Positions 15,217-21,885 of a stretch of DNA of 51,322 bases are shown piece by piece. Origin of the DNA: an uncultured Nitrospira sp. (GTDB lineage: Bacteria; Nitrospirota; Nitrospiria; Nitrospirales; Nitrospiraceae); assembly GCA_902500995.1 (NCBI GenBank), contig CABVSR010000027.1:1-51322 (forward strand). Direction: 5' to 3'. The translations under genes were made by a program, and so were the position numbers. The notes below the pieces were generated by a model. That model searched no databases and was not told the DNA's origin. It was given only the letters and a program-made list of their open reading frames with translations. Numbering within the stretch: position 1 is the first letter of the stretch; the number at the start of each line of letters is the position of its first letter.

Positions 15217-17037
15217 ATGGCACGTATAGTCGGCATCGATCTCGGCACCACCAACTCTCTTGTCGCCTATATGGACAAGGGAACCCCACGCATTATTGCG
15301 TCTCGTCACGAACGCGCCATGGTCCCCTCCGTCGTCGCGCTGACCGACAACGGACTGATCGTCGGTGATCCGGCCAAAGAGCATCTGACAAGACATCCTG
15401 AACGCACGGTCTATTCCGTCAAACGCTTCATGGGCAAGAGTCTGGCCGATGTGCAAGGCGAACTGGCCTATTTTCCTTACGCCCTCACCGAGAAGGGCGG
15501 GGTGATCCGGATTCAGTTGGGAGAGAAGTCGTACTCACCGCCGCAGATTTCCGCGATGATTCTCAAGGAACTCAAACTTCGCGCCGAAGCCTTTCTGGGG
15601 GAAAGCATCACGAAAGCCGTGATCACCGTGCCGGCCTATTTCAACGATAGCCAGCGGCAGGCCACAAAAGACGCCGGCATGATCGCGGGCTTGGAAGTAT
15701 TGCGCATCATCAATGAGCCGACCGCCGCCTCACTGGCGTACGGCCTCCAGGAGAAGACGCAGGGCACCATCGCCGTCTACGATCTGGGCGGCGGCACGTT
15801 CGATATTTCGATCCTGAAGTTGAAGAACGGCATTTTTGAGGTGCTGGCCACAAACGGCGATACGCATCTTGGCGGAGACGACTTCGATCAGTTAGTTGCC
15901 GATCTCCTCCTGAAAGAGATCAAGGCGCAACAGGGCCTCGATCTGAGCGCCCATCCCGATCATATGCAGGCTGTGCGCCTGCAAGCGGAGCGCGCCAAGA
16001 TTCGCCTGTCGGAAGAACTCAAAACCACTGTCTGCCTTGACCTCCCGAACGGACAAGGCCAATTCACGCGCGAGCTGACGCGCGACCAACTCGAAGCACT
16101 CTGCGGTCCCTTGGTCGAGCGATCTCTGGGGCCCTGCCGACTGGCCCTGAAAGATTCCGGGCTGAATCCGACAGAGATCGATGAAGTCGTGCTCGTAGGC
16201 GGATCGACGCGTATGCCGCTGGTCCGCCAACGTGTACAGGCACTCTTCGGCAAACAACCGCACTGCGATTTGAACCCTGACGAAGTGGTCGCGCTCGGCG
16301 CTGCCGTGCAAGCCGATATTCTGAGCGGCGGCACCACCGATATGCTGCTGCTCGACGTGACGCCGCTCTCCTTGGGCATCGAAACCATGGGCGGGGTCAT
16401 GAGCAGCTTGATCAGACGAAACACCACCATTCCCGCAAGCGCCAAGGAAATGTTCACCACCTATGTTGACGGCCAAACCGGTGTGGACATCCACATTCTC
16501 CAGGGAGAGCGCGAGCTGGCAAAGGACAACCGCAGCTTGGCCCGTTTTCGCCTCAAGATTCCGCCGTTGCCGGCAGGAGTTCCTCGCATCGAAGTGACGT
16601 TCCTGATCGATGCCAACGGCATTCTCAATGTCATGGCCAAGGATATGCGGACCGGAGAGACCCAGTCGATCGAAGTCAAACCGTCGTACGGATTGTCGGA
16701 TCAAGAAGTCGAGCGGATGATCGAAGACTCATTCAAATTCGCGGCGGACGATGTCAGCGCTCGAAAAGTCATTGAAGCGCGGTTGGACGCAGGAGCGCTG
16801 ATAACCACGACCGAGAAATCATTGGCTGACGGCGGACATCTCGTCGCCGCAGGGGAGGTCGCGACCATTCGTGCCGCGCTCTCCGCCCTGGCGTCCGCCA
16901 AAGAAGGCAGCGATCCCCGCGCTATTCGCGCACGGATGGCCGATCTCGAACAGGCGGCCAAAGGCCTCACTGTGGCCATGCTCGACGACTCCTTGAAACA
17001 AGGGCTGCAAGGCAAAAAAATCTCGGATGTGACGTGA
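15217..17037 (+). CDS. hscA: Hsp70-type Fe-S chaperone HscA
   Basis: 606 residues with the DnaK-family ATPase domain (GIDLGTTNSLVAY at the start, YDLGGGTFDISIL, EVVLVGGSTRMPLVRQ) and a substrate domain beginning with LLDVTPLSLGIET. The C-terminal lid is short, as in HscA. Together with HscB it drives transfer of clusters from IscU. Operon position between hscB (5 bases) and iscX (22 bases) separates it from a general DnaK. Near full length, no missing motif noticed. Confidence 0.96.
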   Translation: MARIVGIDLGTTNSLVAYMDKGTPRIIASRHERAMVPSVVALTDNGLIVGDPAKEHLTRHPERTVYSVKRFMGKSLADVQGELAYFPYALTEKGGVIRIQLGEKSYSPPQISAMILKELKLRAEAFLGESITKAVITVPAYFNDSQRQATKDAGMIAGLEVLRIINEPTAASLAYGLQEKTQGTIAVYDLGGGTFDISILKLKNGIFEVLATNGDTHLGGDDFDQLVADLLLKEIKAQQGLDLSAHPDHMQAVRLQAERAKIRLSEELKTTVCLDLPNGQGQFTRELTRDQLEALCGPLVERSLGPCRLALKDSGLNPTEIDEVVLVGGSTRMPLVRQRVQALFGKQPHCDLNPDEVVALGAAVQADILSGGTTDMLLLDVTPLSLGIETMGGVMSSLIRRNTTIPASAKEMFTTYVDGQTGVDIHILQGERELAKDNRSLARFRLKIPPLPAGVPRIEVTFLIDANGILNVMAKDMRTGETQSIEVKPSYGLSDQEVERMIEDSFKFAADDVSARKVIEARLDAGALITTTEKSLADGGHLVAAGEVATIRAALSALASAKEGSDPRAIRARMADLEQAAKGLTVAMLDDSLKQGLQGKKISDVT

Positions 17038-17059
17038 TTCCCCGACGCGAGGAGTTCTG

Positions 17060-17272
17060 ATGGATTTGAAATGGCAGGATGCGGAAGAGATTGCAATTCG
17101 TCTGGTGGAGGAACACCCGGATGCTGATCCGCTGACCATCCGCTTTACAGATATGCACGCCTGGATCGTCGCCCTCCCGGAGTTCAAAGACGATCCCAAG
17201 AAATCAAACGAGAAAATCCTCGAATCCATCCAGATGGCCTGGCACGAGGAATATCAGGATTCCCGCTCCTGA
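17060..17272 (+). CDS. iscX: Fe-S assembly protein IscX
   Basis: 70 residues, the family's usual size (~66). The conserved WQDAEEIAIRL, the central DPLTIRFTDMHAWIV and the C-terminal SNEKILESIQMAWHEE are characteristic. IscX (YfhJ) is a small acidic winged-helix protein that binds IscS and iron and tunes assembly. It closes the isc operon, as in gammaproteobacteria. GAGGAG lies in front of the ATG. Confidence 0.95.
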   Translation: MDLKWQDAEEIAIRLVEEHPDADPLTIRFTDMHAWIVALPEFKDDPKKSNEKILESIQMAWHEEYQDSRS

Positions 17273-17387: not shown

Positions 17388-19778
17388 CTACGGCTCGGCG
17401 GGAGGAGGAGCACTCTCCTGGCCTTGATCCAGCCTGTAAAATTCGGTGGGATCGATCTTGGACCCGGCGCTTCTTGTCGGCTCCGTGCCCTTGGTAAACA
17501 GTTCCACTGTGCCACGCTGTTCATCTTGGTCGGTGAGGAGCGCCGTCGAGGGATCGACCTTCACGAACATGACACCTTCGGGAATTTCAAAGGGCACGAC
17601 CGGCAGTTGCTTGAGCGCCTCCTTCATGAAGGCGATCCAAATCGGCAAGGCCGCGTGCGCGCCTGACTCGGTTTCACCCAAGGGACGCCGGTCGTCGAAT
17701 CCTACCCATGCGCCGGTTGCCAGATTGGGCGTGGAGCCGATGAACCAGGCATCGGTAAAGTCGTTGGTGGTACCGGTCTTTCCTGCGACGGGCCGGTCAA
17801 TCACCGCTTTGGCGGCGATGCCCGTGCCGCGCTGGATCACATCTTCCATCATGTTCGTAATGAGGTACGCCGTCTCACGGGACACCACCTGCCGCGGCTG
17901 AATCGCCGCTTGGTCCAATGTGCGTCCCCCGCTGTCCTGCACGCTGGCCACGGCATAGGGCTCCACACGCACGCCCTGATTGGCAAACACTCCGTAGACT
18001 GACACGAGCTCCGTCAAGCCGACGCTGGAAGAGCCCAAGGCGAGAGAAAGATCCGCGGCCAGCGGACTGACGACGCCCACGGTCCGCGAGAAATCGATCA
18101 CATTTCGTATCCCGACTTTGTCCAGAAGGCGGACCGTCGCGAGATTGTGCGAATGGATCAAGGCTTCCCGCAGGCTGACGATGCCGTGAAAACGCTTGCC
18201 GTAGTTCTCAGGCTTCCAGGTCTTGTCTTCTTCCTCTTGCTCATACACCACCGGCGCATCCAAGACGACGGTCGCCGGACTCATGCCCTGATTCATGGCC
18301 GTCGCATAGATAATCGGTTTAAACGACGAGCCCGGCTGGCGGCGGGCAAGGACCGCACGATTATATTCGCTGCGCGCGAAATCATACCCGCCGACCATCG
18401 CACGAATCGCGCCGGTTTTAGGATCGACGGCGACCAGCGCCCCTTCCACCACCGGTGTCTGTTCCAGCCGCAGATGCACGACGTCTTTGTCCAGCTTCTT
18501 CACCCCGACTTCGATCACGTCCCCGGGCGTGAGCAGCTGCTTGACGTTCTTCACGGGGACGGCGTCCTTCGTGGGATCTTTGCCTTTGAGATATTTGGTA
18601 GCCCAGGCCATATCGTCGAAGGACAGCCGACCGGTGCTGGCGCCGATCTGGACCAGCACGTGATCTTTGGCAACCTTCGTCACGACCCCTTCCATCATAT
18701 CCCCTTCGGCAAGTTTGACCGCGGGATCGGCAGCCGGAACCTCCAACGTCGCCGGATCGACCGTACGGAGAGGCCCCCGCCAGCCCTGGCGCTTGTCCAC
18801 TTCCCGCAAGCCGTTGAACACCGCCGCTTCCGCCGCCTTCTGCATGTCGGCGTTCAGCGTGGTGAAGACTTCCAGCCCGCCCTTGTACACCATGGTCTCG
18901 CCGAACTTGGCCACCAGGAGCTGGCGAATGTATTCCACAAAATACGGGCCGAGATGTTCGCTCCCGGGGCGGCGGAAATTCAGCTTTTCCGCGATGGCCT
19001 GATCGCGGTCGGCGGCACTGATGAACCCCGCCTCTGCCATGCGGCTCAACACATGCTCCTGCCGCTTCTTGGCCCGGTCATAGGCCTTGAACGGCGAGTA
19101 GTGGCTGGGTGATTTGGGAAGCCCGGCCAGGAACGCCGATTCAGCCAACGTCAACTTCGACAGTTCCTTCCCGAAATAGGTCTGCCCGGCCGCCGCGACG
19201 CCGTAGGCGCCCTGCCCGAAATAGATCTGGTTCAGATACATCTCCAGAATCTGTTCCTTCGTCAGGACCAACTCCATCTTGTAGGCCAAGATGAGTTCGC
19301 GCACCTTGCGATCAAACGTCCGCTCCGCCGAAAGGAACAGGGACCGCGCCAACTGCTGGGTGATCGTACTGGCGCCTTCGACCTTCCGCCCGCCATGCCG
19401 GAGATTGGTCCAGGCTGCCCGAAGAATGCCTACGATATCCAAGCCGGGGTGCTCAAAGAACCTCGTATCTTCGGTCGCAATGACGGCCTGAGTCAGGCTC
19501 TTAGGCATGTCTTGGATGGGTTTGAGAAAGCGCCGTTCAATGAAAAACTGGCCGATGACCTGCCGATCGTCCGAATAGACGCGCGTGACCAAACTCGGCT
19601 GATAGTTCTGGAGCGGATCGAGTGAAGGCAGATCTTGAGAAAAATACCAGAGCGTTCCGGCGGCTCCCCCGCCGCCCAGCACTATGGCGAGCAGCAGGCC
19701 GATCAGGATGATTTTCCACCAGCGCCGGCGACGACGTGGCTTCTCCGGCTTATCGAGCAAGTGATCGAGTTCGGACAT
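17388..19778 (-). CDS. mrcA: PBP1A-family bifunctional peptidoglycan synthase
   Basis: 796 residues. A cytoplasmic basic stretch (KPRRRRRWWK) and one membrane segment (~22-45) anchor it in the inner membrane. The transglycosylase domain shows ATEDTRFFEHPGLD (catalytic Glu), GASTITQQLARSLFL, KVRELILAYKMEL and IYFGQGAYGVAAAG. An OB-like insert lies between (~330-420), then the transpeptidase with SxxK in QPGSSFKPIIYATA, SHN in IHSHNLATV and KTGTTNDF. It polymerises and cross-links peptidoglycan. The C-terminus ends in a Pro-rich tail. Family membership is safe; the gene name follows the usual PBP1A convention. Confidence 0.94.
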   Translation of the reverse strand: MSELDHLLDKPEKPRRRRRWWKIILIGLLLAIVLGGGGAAGTLWYFSQDLPSLDPLQNYQPSLVTRVYSDDRQVIGQFFIERRFLKPIQDMPKSLTQAVIATEDTRFFEHPGLDIVGILRAAWTNLRHGGRKVEGASTITQQLARSLFLSAERTFDRKVRELILAYKMELVLTKEQILEMYLNQIYFGQGAYGVAAAGQTYFGKELSKLTLAESAFLAGLPKSPSHYSPFKAYDRAKKRQEHVLSRMAEAGFISAADRDQAIAEKLNFRRPGSEHLGPYFVEYIRQLLVAKFGETMVYKGGLEVFTTLNADMQKAAEAAVFNGLREVDKRQGWRGPLRTVDPATLEVPAADPAVKLAEGDMMEGVVTKVAKDHVLVQIGASTGRLSFDDMAWATKYLKGKDPTKDAVPVKNVKQLLTPGDVIEVGVKKLDKDVVHLRLEQTPVVEGALVAVDPKTGAIRAMVGGYDFARSEYNRAVLARRQPGSSFKPIIYATAMNQGMSPATVVLDAPVVYEQEEEDKTWKPENYGKRFHGIVSLREALIHSHNLATVRLLDKVGIRNVIDFSRTVGVVSPLAADLSLALGSSSVGLTELVSVYGVFANQGVRVEPYAVASVQDSGGRTLDQAAIQPRQVVSRETAYLITNMMEDVIQRGTGIAAKAVIDRPVAGKTGTTNDFTDAWFIGSTPNLATGAWVGFDDRRPLGETESGAHAALPIWIAFMKEALKQLPVVPFEIPEGVMFVKVDPSTALLTDQDEQRGTVELFTKGTEPTRSAGSKIDPTEFYRLDQGQESAPPPAEP

Positions 19779-19906
19779 GAAGTTGGATGGTTGCGAGGAA
19801 AGAGGTCAACCCGCGACAACCCCACCATACAATGCGCACCGGACAAACTCAAGCAAGGCGCGAATCGCCGTTGCAAGAACTTTCCGCTGCACATTCCACA
19901 ATCAGC

Positions 19907-19977
19907 TTGCCGGAAGCTCATTCAATCGGGTATAGTCCATAGGCTTAGACGCCTTCATAGGAAGGCGTCTTTTTTTT
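19907..19977 (+). terminator. typA leader: promoter followed at once by a terminator-like hairpin
   Basis: TTGCCG at 19907-19912 and TATAGT at 19931-19936 (18-base spacer) form a plausible promoter with transcription starting near 19943. AGACGCCTTC at 19947-19956 and GAAGGCGTCT at 19961-19970 make a perfect 10-bp stem with a 4-base loop followed by eight T residues, a textbook intrinsic terminator on the plus strand. No plus-strand gene precedes it; the neighbour mrcA is divergent. It therefore lies in the 5' leader of typA, or ends an unseen short RNA. Confidence 0.7.
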
Positions 19978-20001: not shown

Positions 20002-21885
20002 ATGAACAGCTCAGCGTCCTCATCCACCACAGGTTTGCACGCGCCGAAAGGTCGTCGGACCGACATTCGCAACATCGCCATCATCGCCCACGTCGATCAC
20101 GGGAAAACGACACTCGTCGATGCCGTGCTGCGGCAGACCCACGTGCATCGCAAGATCGATGACATGGGCGAGCGCATCATGGACTCAATGGATCAGGAGC
20201 GCGAGCGCGGCATCACCATCCGGGCCAAGAATGCCAGCGTGACCTATAAAGGGGTGAAGATCAATATTGTCGATACGCCGGGACACGCCGACTTCGGCGG
20301 CGAAGTCGAGCGCACGCTCCGCATGGTGGACGGCGTTCTCATCCTCGTCGATGCCAAAGAAGGCCCCATGCCGCAAACCACGTTTGTCCTGCGGAAAGCG
20401 TTGGCCCTCGGGCACAAAGCCATCGTCGTCGTCAATAAGATCGATCGCCCGGACGCCGTGATCGATGACGTGGTCAATCGCACGTTCGATTTATTCGTGC
20501 ATCTGGGCGCGACCGACGACCAACTGGATTTCCCCATCGTCTACGCCTCCGCCATCAAAGGTATCGCGACGCTCGACCTCAAACAGCCGGGGACGGATAT
20601 CTCCCCGCTGCTGGAAACCATTCTCGACAAGATCCCCGCACCGGCTATCAACCGCGACGATCCCTTCCAGCTCCTGGTGCTGGCGCTTGCGCAGGACTCC
20701 TATAAGGGCAAGATGGGAATCGGCAAGATTCAATCCGGCTCGATCGCTCGTCGCCAGAATGTGGTGACGCTCACCAAGGACGGCGGCCAAGTCCCCGGCA
20801 AAATTTCCGACCTGGCCGTATTCTCCGGGCTTGAGCGCAGCGACGTGGAATCCGCAGAAGCCGGTGAAATCGTCGCCATTTCGGGACTTGATGAAGTGAA
20901 CATCGGCGATACCATTGCCGATCCGGCCAATCCTGTCGCGCTGCCTCGCGTCACGATCGATGAACCGACCGTGCAAATGACCTTTTCCGTGAACAACAGC
21001 CCCTTTGCCGGCCGCGACGGGAAATACCTGACGTCTCGCCACCTGCGCGAACGCTTGTTCAAGGAATTGGAAACCAACGTGTCCTTGCGGGTGCAGGAAA
21101 CCGATAGCGCCGACCGGTTTCTCGTGGCCGGCCGGGGAGAGCTTCATCTCGGGGTGCTCATCGAACAAATGCGGCGTGAAGGGTATGAGCTGCAAATCTC
21201 CCAACCGGAAGTCATTCTGCATCGAGACGGGGAGACGGTCACGGAACCGTTTGAGGAACTGACGATCCAGGTTCCTTCGGAATATCAAGGCCCGGTGATC
21301 GAGGAAATCGGCAAACGGCGCGGCGAACTGCGCCATATGAAACTCGTCCATTCTGAGGGCACCTCCAGCGAGATGCACATCGAGTATCACATTCCGACAC
21401 GCGGCATCATCGGCCTCAAAAATATCCTGCTCGCGAAGACACGGGGCACCATCATCATGCACCACGTGTTTTCTGGCTATGCCCCGGCCGACGAAAAAGC
21501 GCTCCTCGTGGCGCCCCATGGCTCGCTGGTGGCGTTCGAGGCCGGAACCAGTACGGCCTACGCGCTCTTCATGACCCAGGAACGCGGTGAATTGTTCATT
21601 GGCGCGTCGGTCGAGGTGTATCAGGGGATGGTCGTCGGGCAAAACAGCCGTGATGAAGACCTGGATGTCAATGTCTGCAAGCAGAAGCAATTGAGCAACA
21701 TGCGAGCCGCCGGCACCGACGAAGCGCTGGTGCTCACGCCGCCGCGTGAAATGTCGCTCGAATTCGCGATGGAATATATCGGTCAGGACGAATTGGTCGA
21801 GGTCACCCCGAAGTATCTGCGCCTCCGCAAGCGGATGCTTAACCCGGAGGACCGCCGGAAGGCAAAGAAGAGCGCGAAAGCGTAG
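20002..21885 (+). CDS. typA: Ribosome-associated GTPase TypA/BipA
   Basis: 627 residues from the ATG at 20002 (GGAG just upstream). The N-terminal GTPase has AHVDHGKTT (G1), the switch region [26 protein letters not shown] (G3) and NKIDRPDA (G4), followed by EF-G-like domains III and V and the TypA C-terminal domain (SPREMSLEF-type region [20 protein letters not shown]). TypA acts on the 70S ribosome and matters for growth under stress such as cold. Length is about the usual 605-610 plus a 15-residue Ser/Thr-rich N-terminal extension. A terminator-like hairpin sits in its leader. Confidence 0.97.

What the first reader, a model, noticed from the sequence alone, without database searches (positions are those of the whole stretch)
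19907..19977. Terminator-like hairpin at the very start of the typA leader
A perfect 10-bp stem with 4-base loop and eight T residues sits about 5 bases after the predicted start of transcription and 25 bases before the typA start. Transcription of typA must pass it. This may be attenuation control of the ribosome-associated GTPase, or the end of an unannotated small RNA transcribed opposite to mrcA.
Basis: partly seen in the sequence, partly recalled or inferred. Interest (0 to 1): 0.5.

Follow-up and report, generated by a model that had tools for sequence, protein, structure and literature searches.

The report
Terminator hairpin starting the typA mRNA
In Nitrospira bacteria the gene for the ribosome-associated GTPase TypA is preceded by a promoter whose predicted transcript begins, within a few bases of its start, with a near-perfect stop signal; selection has preserved this arrangement, which probably throttles typA expression.

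Summary
Window 19947-19977 is a 10-bp stem, 4-base loop and T run, directly 3' of a TTGCCG-18-TATAGT promoter and 24 bases before typA. It is not chance. Of 79 typA leaders with the motif, 78 have a TATAnT box 6-11 bases before the stem core. A strict terminator is on the sense strand in 79 of 80 leaders of this type, on the antisense strand in none. On a typA tree the promoter boxes and stem core change 0-1 times per column, most spacer columns 11-28 times. Variable stem pairs drift mainly through G-U, so the RNA stem is selected. The element stays with typA when the neighbour gene differs. It is single-copy, and unmatched at other genes in 1.2 Mb of a close relative. In other orders of the class 8 of 13 sampled leaders have a different hairpin there; one lineage has the promoter without a hairpin.

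Best reading: an intrinsic terminator starting at about +1 to +5, so typA transcripts must read through it: a terminator-only attenuator, like the rimP leader. No antiterminator fits upstream; any relief must act in trans or on RNA polymerase. Main rival: a 5'-terminal mRNA-stabilising stem-loop. The small-RNA idea is not supported. Nothing was measured experimentally.

The parts
19906..19912 (+). -35 region of the typA promoter (CTTG core 19906-19909; scored as TTGCCG 19907-19912)
   Evidence: CTTG columns need only 1 change each on the 69-tip tree, against 11-28 in most spacer columns; site listed
19931..19936 (+). -10 box TATAGT (TATACT in most relatives outside the genus)
   Evidence: 78 of 79 leaders; 0-1 changes per column; 9 at the fifth base
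19943..19943 (+). predicted transcription start (inferred, +/- 2 bases; not mapped)
   Evidence: 7 bases 3' of the -10 hexamer, standard sigma-70 geometry (recalled)
19947..19956 (+). 5' arm of the terminator stem
   Evidence: pairing supported by covariation
19957..19960 (+). loop ATAG (variable among relatives)
19961..19970 (+). 3' arm of the terminator stem
19970..19977 (+). T run of eight, flush with the stem
   Evidence: 8 T in 62 of 78 scored leaders, 7 in 9, 6 in 3, 5 in 4
20002..21885 (+). typA (bipA), translational GTPase; ATG preceded by GGAG
   Evidence: TIGR01394 864.6 bits, cut-off 757.3; translation
17388..19778 (-). mrcA-type class A penicillin-binding protein, divergent neighbour; not part of the element
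   Evidence: TIGR02074 636.3 bits; element persists without it

Best explanation
The hairpin is an intrinsic (Rho-independent) terminator built into the first ~30 transcribed bases of typA. RNA polymerase starts at the conserved promoter, transcribes the stem at once, and at the U run most complexes should release a ~30-35-nt hairpin RNA; only the read-through fraction makes typA mRNA. It is thus a terminator-only attenuator that holds TypA, a conditionally needed ribosome assembly factor, at a low level. The stem starts at about +1 to +5, so no RNA upstream of it exists to form an antiterminator, hold a leader peptide or bind a ligand. Any relief must come from a trans factor that melts or blocks the nascent stem (a cold-shock-domain protein is a plausible candidate; two matches lie in this genome) or from the state of the polymerase. 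Shown: promoter boxes, hairpin, T run, strand polarity, RNA-type covariation, deep conservation, single copy, attachment to typA. Inferred: the start site, termination in the cell, its efficiency, and that read-through is regulated.
For: TATAnT box before the hairpin in 78 of 79 leaders with the motif; distance from -10 to the first G of the GACGCC equivalent 6, 7, 8 or 11 bases (18, 24, 11 and 24 leaders; one more, L048, was scored 0 because the script picked the wrong core, and reads 6). In 295 Nitrospirota genomes the unit pattern occurs in 70 of 79 genomes of the window's family (my count from the listing), once per genome except G063 with two. Of the 9 others, 7 have typA and carry a shortened or degenerate version and 2 have no typA match. 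Of 30 fetched hits 29 lie just before typA; the exception is outside the family. Stem cells 95.2% standard pairs; covariation score 0.265 against 0.135 shuffled, 0 of 500 as high. On a 69-tip tree the pair at columns 60/85 changes 12 times, 11 into a standard pair, mostly A-U to G-U, never A-C. The T run is on the typA strand only (79 sense, 0 antisense of 80). In 1.2 Mb of a close complete genome, of 90 strict terminators its T-tract score ranks 3rd and its T run is the longest; of 12 terminators in leader position only typA's has a promoter match of 8 of 12 directly 5' of it, the next best 6. Other orders of the class: strict terminator in 8 of 13 sense, 0 of 13 antisense, with different stems; in L178, L191, L206 and L208 a promoter match just upstream beats nearly all of 300 shuffles. 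Precedent: rimP-leader; CspD and other cold-shock-family proteins raise read-through of intrinsic terminators in E. coli (passages); two CSD matches in this genome; E. coli bipA is needed at low temperature (passages).
Against: No transcript ends are known here; start and termination are inferred. I found no evidence on how well an intrinsic terminator works within ~30 bases of +1 (the one search for it, listed 7 papers, none decisive by title or abstract). The exact placement of the stem at the transcript start is not required by attenuation and fits a 5'-terminal stabilising hairpin better. The hairpin's energy is only 24th of 90. The outermost stem pair 59/86 is unpaired in 11 sequences and breaks in 5 of 9 inferred changes; pair 66/79 breaks in 6 of 17. 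Two of the five covariation measures do not beat the shuffles (pairs with a double change 90 of 500, pair types 74 of 500). A subclade has only five T (CATTTTTG) and two leaders (L383, L387) a broken or short T run. In L354-L356 the same promoter is present without a hairpin. In eight of the twelve distant hairpins tested the promoter match upstream is not significant. The invariant CGCC/GGCG core (69 of 69) is more sequence conservation than a terminator needs. The cold link is an analogy: no temperature data were found.
Confidence: 0.6

Rival explanations
1. 5'-terminal stabilising stem-loop. The mRNA starts with the stem, which blocks 5'-end-dependent decay; the U run is a single-stranded ribosome or S1 landing site. 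Termination is minor.
For: Stem core 6-11 bases after the -10 in the 78 leaders with a box, so almost no unpaired 5' bases; some leaders have a poor Shine-Dalgarno (by eye); 5' stem-loops stabilise several bacterial mRNAs (review passages; the 5'-end distance rule is recalled).
Against: Does not explain why the T run is flush with the stem and eight long in 62 of 78 leaders, nor why replacement hairpins in other orders also end in T runs.
Confidence: 0.2
2. DNA operator: the inverted repeat just 3' of the -10 is bound by a repressor, and the T run is incidental.
For: Invariant CGCC/GGCG core with no changes on the tree and operator-like position.
Against: Variable pairs use G-U freely (columns 60/85: 16 G-U, 0 A-C; 65/80: 33 U-G, 0 C-A; 66/79: 11 G-U or U-G against 2 C-A and 10 G-G), which is meaningless for a DNA dyad; loop length varies; other orders have unrelated palindromes with T runs.
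Confidence: 0.06
3. Ordinary terminator or insulator that stops read-through from upstream (antisense to mrcA, or the upstream gene, or an unknown small RNA), with typA polymerases passing because the site is too near the promoter.
For: In several loci the longest upstream frame reads toward typA (L043, L052 and others); position-dependent termination cannot be excluded.
Against: In 79 loci, the window's among them, mrcA is divergent next to typA, so there is no upstream gene to terminate; insulation would not need to sit at a fixed distance after the promoter.
Confidence: 0.08
4. The product is the ~30-nt hairpin RNA, a tiny regulatory RNA; typA is expressed by leakage.
For: A conserved promoter plus terminator could define such an RNA; U8 tail as in Hfq-bound RNAs; weak Rfam similarity to suhB/mmgR (26.2 bits, gathering 41, E = 0.0015).
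Against: The loop is variable so there is no conserved seed; the Rfam alignment runs back over the -10 box, which is not transcribed from this promoter; the element sits before typA in 29 of 30 fetched pattern hits.
Confidence: 0.04

Closest known systems
rimP-leader (terminator-only leader of rimP-nusA-infB; Naville and Gautheret 2010, PMC2965389; its section on this leader read)
   Same: Short conserved intrinsic terminator before a ribosome maturation gene, highly conserved G+C motif in the stem, no visible antiterminator in most species, 4-130 nt from the start codon.
   Different: rimP motif is GGGc...gCCC, here CGCC...GGCG; the B. subtilis rimP leader is ~180 nt, here the stem begins at the predicted transcript start; gene is typA; no match to such a family in Rfam.
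Classical attenuators and riboswitches (trp, T-box and others; recalled)
   Same: A terminator between promoter and start codon that must be read through.
   Different: Those carry a sensor or antiterminator 5' of the terminator; here there are at most a few transcribed bases before the stem.
5'-terminal stabilising stem-loops (review passages; ompA-type rule recalled)
   Same: Stem within a few bases of the mRNA 5' end.
   Different: As recalled, those are not followed by a flush eight-T run.
Cold-shock-protein read-through of terminators (E. coli metY-rpsO and CspD targets; passages of PMC9765468)
   Same: A possible trans mechanism for relief.
   Different: No evidence here that a Csp acts on the typA hairpin.

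Membership tests
Intrinsic (Rho-independent) terminator | G+C-rich stem, short loop, flush U run on the RNA strand | tested here: met
Intrinsic (Rho-independent) terminator | RNA stem conserved as structure | tested here: met
   (95.2% paired, covariation score above 500 of 500 shuffles; two of five measures not above them; outermost pair often broken)
Intrinsic (Rho-independent) terminator | RNA polymerase actually terminates there | not testable with these tools
   no transcript data
Transcription attenuator | terminator lies between the gene's promoter and its start codon | tested here: met
   TATAnT box before the stem in 78 of 79 leaders; no -10 box of 5 or more of 6 between T run and first ATG in 79; promoter itself predicted, not mapped
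Transcription attenuator | alternative antiterminator structure or sensor upstream | tested here: not met
   stem core 6-11 bases after the -10 box leaves no room
Transcription attenuator | read-through varies with a signal | not testable with these tools
   needs expression data
rimP-leader (Rfam) | match to the family model | tested here: not met
   not among the 7 matches up to E = 10 in 301 bases
rimP-leader (Rfam) | located before rimP-nusA-infB | tested here: not met
   located before typA
5'-terminal stabilising stem-loop | stem within a few bases of the 5' end | tested here: inconclusive
   fits the predicted start; start not mapped
Trans-acting small RNA (suhB/mmgR and others) | match above the gathering score | tested here: not met
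   26.2 bits against 41; only tRNAs reach gathering in the window
Repeat or mobile element | several copies per genome | tested here: not met
   typA-leader hairpin once in each of 28 of 29 genus genomes; three genomes have one extra pattern hit of another sequence, two of which were read and are not before typA

The most novel reading that the evidence does not exclude
The typA promoter is a self-terminating, idling promoter: polymerase starts, terminates within ~30 bases, stays on the DNA and restarts at the same promoter (recycling of terminated polymerase is shown in vitro, abstract). This would keep polymerase poised at typA until termination is relieved, by a cold-shock-domain protein or a change in polymerase state, giving a fast burst of this ribosome-assembly GTPase. 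It would be a bacterial analogue of promoter-proximal pausing, written in sequence and conserved over a family and perhaps a class.
Probability: 0.1. Interest if true: 0.8.

Novelty: new variant of a known kind. Interest (0 to 1): 0.5.

Why it matters
As far as I recall and found, little is known of how typA (bipA) is regulated, although it is widespread and matters at low temperature and under stress. Here a conserved cis element makes that testable in a group of nitrifiers. It also isolates a simple question: what can a terminator do when nothing precedes it in the RNA, so that only polymerase state or a trans factor can tune it? Natural variants (intact, five-T, broken T run, promoter without hairpin) are a ready-made allelic series.

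Tried and rejected
Small RNA antisense to mrcA: rejected on geometry and on loci with other neighbours. Repeat element: rejected, single copy. Known Rfam family: none above threshold. DNA operator: disfavoured by wobble pairs. Spread beyond the class: Omnitrophota showed no excess (3 of 30 sense, 4 of 30 antisense); a sister family of the same order with ~52% TypA identity 2 of 15 sense, 1 of 15 antisense (14 distinct); other classes of the phylum 7 of 71 against 1 of 71. So the first impression that Omnitrophota L107 and Doudnabacteria L109 share the element was dropped. For 12 distant hairpins the promoter match just upstream was significant only in L178, L191, L206 and L208, not in L170, L171, L198, L211, L212, L217, L219 and L240, and some of these hairpins may end an upstream gene. 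An antiterminator was not looked for by folding because the geometry excludes it upstream; a GCGTC at about 20013-20018 that could pair with the 5' arm is not conserved (by eye). Of the 14 pattern hits outside the family I looked at two: L140 is not before typA, and in G145 hit and typA lie on different contigs. Literature; I saw the listed rows only (for example 20 of 197, 20 of 50, 15 of 176, 7 of 7), and no listed title or abstract describes a typA leader terminator; the library lacks most subscription journals.

Full report
What is there. At window 19947-19970 the + strand holds AGACGCCTTC-ATAG-GAAGGCGTCT followed by T to 19977, with the typA ATG at 20002. The promoter/terminator scan of 7 kb finds 10 terminator-like sites (6.4 expected), of which this has by far the most pairs, and lists TTGCCG-18-TATAGT at 19907-19936. 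The protein is TypA (TIGR01394, 864.6 bits, cut-off 757.3), and the divergent neighbour is a PBP1A-type protein (TIGR02074, 636.3 bits). No Rfam family other than tRNA passes its threshold in the window; in the leader the best sub-threshold hit is suhB/mmgR, 26.2 bits against 41, which looks like a generic terminator match.

Conservation. typA loci were gathered from the genus (27 of 29 genomes) and from GTDB genomes (80 loci kept). Four loci cut inside typA were dropped. After merging identical leaders there were 92, and a loose finder sees a terminator in 83. Of the 9 misses, L074 and L082 are also cut inside typA; L089, L094, L095, L099, L101, L106 and L108 have none. 79 leaders (the window's included) carry the GGCG...T-run motif, and 78 of these have TATAnT before it; L093 has mrcA-like coding sequence where the promoter should be (deletion or misassembly). 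From the -10 to the first G of the GACGCC equivalent there are 6 (18 leaders), 7 (24), 8 (11) or 11 (24) bases; one, L048, was scored 0 through a wrongly picked core and reads 6. The T run is 8 in 62, 7 in 9, 6 in 3 and 5 in 4. With the usual +1 seven bases after the -10 (recalled), the stem starts at about +1 to +5 (in the window's genus, where the core is 11 bases away, one or two further pairs extend the stem outward). Between the T run and the first ATG no leader of 79 has a -10 box matching 5 or more of 6; 24 have one matching 4.

Whole-genome check. In 295 Nitrospirota genomes a pattern for -10 plus hairpin plus T run hits 84; within the window's family it hits 70 of 79 by my count of the listing. 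The other nine: G251 and G299 have no typA match; seven have typA and show a five-T version (L382, L384-L386), a broken or short T run (L383, L387) or an imperfect stem (L388). Of 30 hit loci fetched, 29 lie just upstream of typA, the exception being outside the family; the other hits were not fetched. The hairpin pattern occurs at typA in 28 of 29 genus genomes, once each. Three genomes have one extra hit with another sequence (CGCCAA...); the two that I read are not before typA and look like coding sequence by eye.

Selection acts on promoter and RNA stem. On an alignment of 69 leaders, 95.2% of stem cells are standard pairs and the covariation score is 0.265 against 0.135 in shuffles (0 of 500); sliding the partner lowers it to 0.093 or less. 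Two cruder measures do not beat the shuffles (pairs with a double change, 90 of 500; pair types, 74 of 500). Columns 60/85 read A-U 49, G-U 16, G-C 3, other 1, never A-C; columns 65/80 read U-G 33, U-A 23, C-G 6, G-C 4; columns 66/79 are looser (12 not paired, 2 of them C-A) and the outermost pair 59/86 is unpaired in 11. On a 69-tip typA tree the pair 60/85 changes 12 times, 11 of them into a standard pair; 65/80 15 times (12 into standard), 66/79 17 (10), 59/86 9 (2); the four core pairs never change. The CTTG columns and the TATA.T columns change 0-1 times, while the 15 columns that follow the -35 (21-35) change 11-28 times. Tolerance of G-U argues for RNA rather than a DNA dyad. The invariance of the CGCC/GGCG core goes beyond structure and is unexplained.

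It belongs to typA, not to mrcA. mrcA lies divergently within 600 bases in 79 of 194 loci examined, none of them among the 90 distant ones (60 of which hold only some 600 bases upstream). In L041, L045, L049, L053 and L060 it is further away, and in L043, L052, L059, L066, L070 and L077 it is not found and the longest upstream frame reads toward typA; the promoter-hairpin is kept in all eleven.

Reach. Strict terminators within 195 bases, sense and antisense: Nitrospiraceae type 79 and 0 of 80 (shuffled mean 1.2); other orders of the class 8 and 0 of 13; a sister family of the order 2 and 1 of 15; other classes 7 and 1 of 71; Omnitrophota 3 and 4 of 30 (by distinct leaders 77 and 0 of 78 for the first group and 14 for the third). 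In the other orders the stem is different (for example CCCCAAG...CTTGGGG). Of 12 distant hairpins tested, four (L178, L191, L206, L208) have a promoter match just 5' of them that at most 2 of 300 shuffles reach; eight do not. In Nitrospirales L352 and L353 have TTGACT-18-TATAGT/TAGAGT plus another hairpin, while L354-L356 have the same kind of promoter and no hairpin, read as a loss because related leaders outside this group have one; no tree was made for this.

Background. In 1.2 Mb of the complete relative G016 (1017 ORFs by a simple caller) there are 90 strict terminators, 12 in leader position and 4 of these with a divergent upstream gene. Only typA has a promoter match of 8 of 12 directly 5' of the stem; the next best is 6. 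Its hairpin energy (-16.9 kcal/mol) ranks 24th and its T-tract score 3rd of 90, with the longest T run. The window's own hairpin folds at -16.5, by coincidence the mean published for 5' terminators, against -20.2 for 3' ones (PMC2965389, section read).

Mechanism. The anatomy (promoter, immediate stem, flush T run, no good promoter box before the ATG) means that typA transcription must read through a terminator. I take it as a terminator-only attenuator, probability 0.6. The first few transcribed bases leave no room for a classical antiterminator, so control, if any, is in trans or in the polymerase. Cold-shock-family proteins raise read-through of intrinsic terminators in E. coli (PMC9765468, passages), two CSD matches are in this genome, and E. 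coli bipA mutants are defective at low temperature (PMC8313970, passages). These make a cold link plausible, no more. The chief rival is a 5'-terminal stabilising stem-loop, which explains the fixed distance to +1 but not the T run; both may be true.

Known relatives and novelty. The nearest described kind is the rimP-leader: a conserved terminator with a highly conserved stem motif and, in most species, no antiterminator, before a ribosome maturation gene (PMC2965389, section read; the words typA and bipA do not occur in its main text). The typA element works like it but is not a member (other gene, other core, no model match). New here are the gene and the position of the stem at the transcript start. 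No title or abstract listed describes it.

Noticed in passing
L354, L355, L356 (same leaders as L095, L094, L099), upstream of typA: Promoter like that of L353 (TTTGACT or TTTGATT ... TTAGAGT) but no hairpin: a natural hairpin-less allele.
   Followed up: partly
L093, just upstream of typA: mrcA-like coding sequence abuts the hairpin and the promoter is missing: recent deletion or misassembly.
   Followed up: no
G016:C1 about 137755 (in the block L260-L279): Terminator in leader position before an ORF whose start looks like PurH (recalled, not searched), with a divergent upstream gene: another attenuator candidate.
   Followed up: no
alignment A1 columns 36-37 (window 19926-19927): A T and a C just upstream of the -10 change only 1 and 5 times on the tree; possibly an extended promoter element.
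   Followed up: no
L373-L381 and Omnitrophota L324-L350: TypA about 52-54% identical to that of L100 (L373-L381), often starting like NQKRRKDVRNVAIIAHVD, as in many Omnitrophota (by eye), without this leader element.
   Followed up: partly
L045, L049, L051, L053, L382, L384-L386: CATTTTTG instead of the eight-T run (some of these loci may be the same genomes), and L383/L387 with broken runs: graded weakening of the terminator.
   Followed up: partly
window 15217-17272: DnaK-like/HscA ORF followed by a small IscX-like ORF (by eye, not searched).
   Followed up: no
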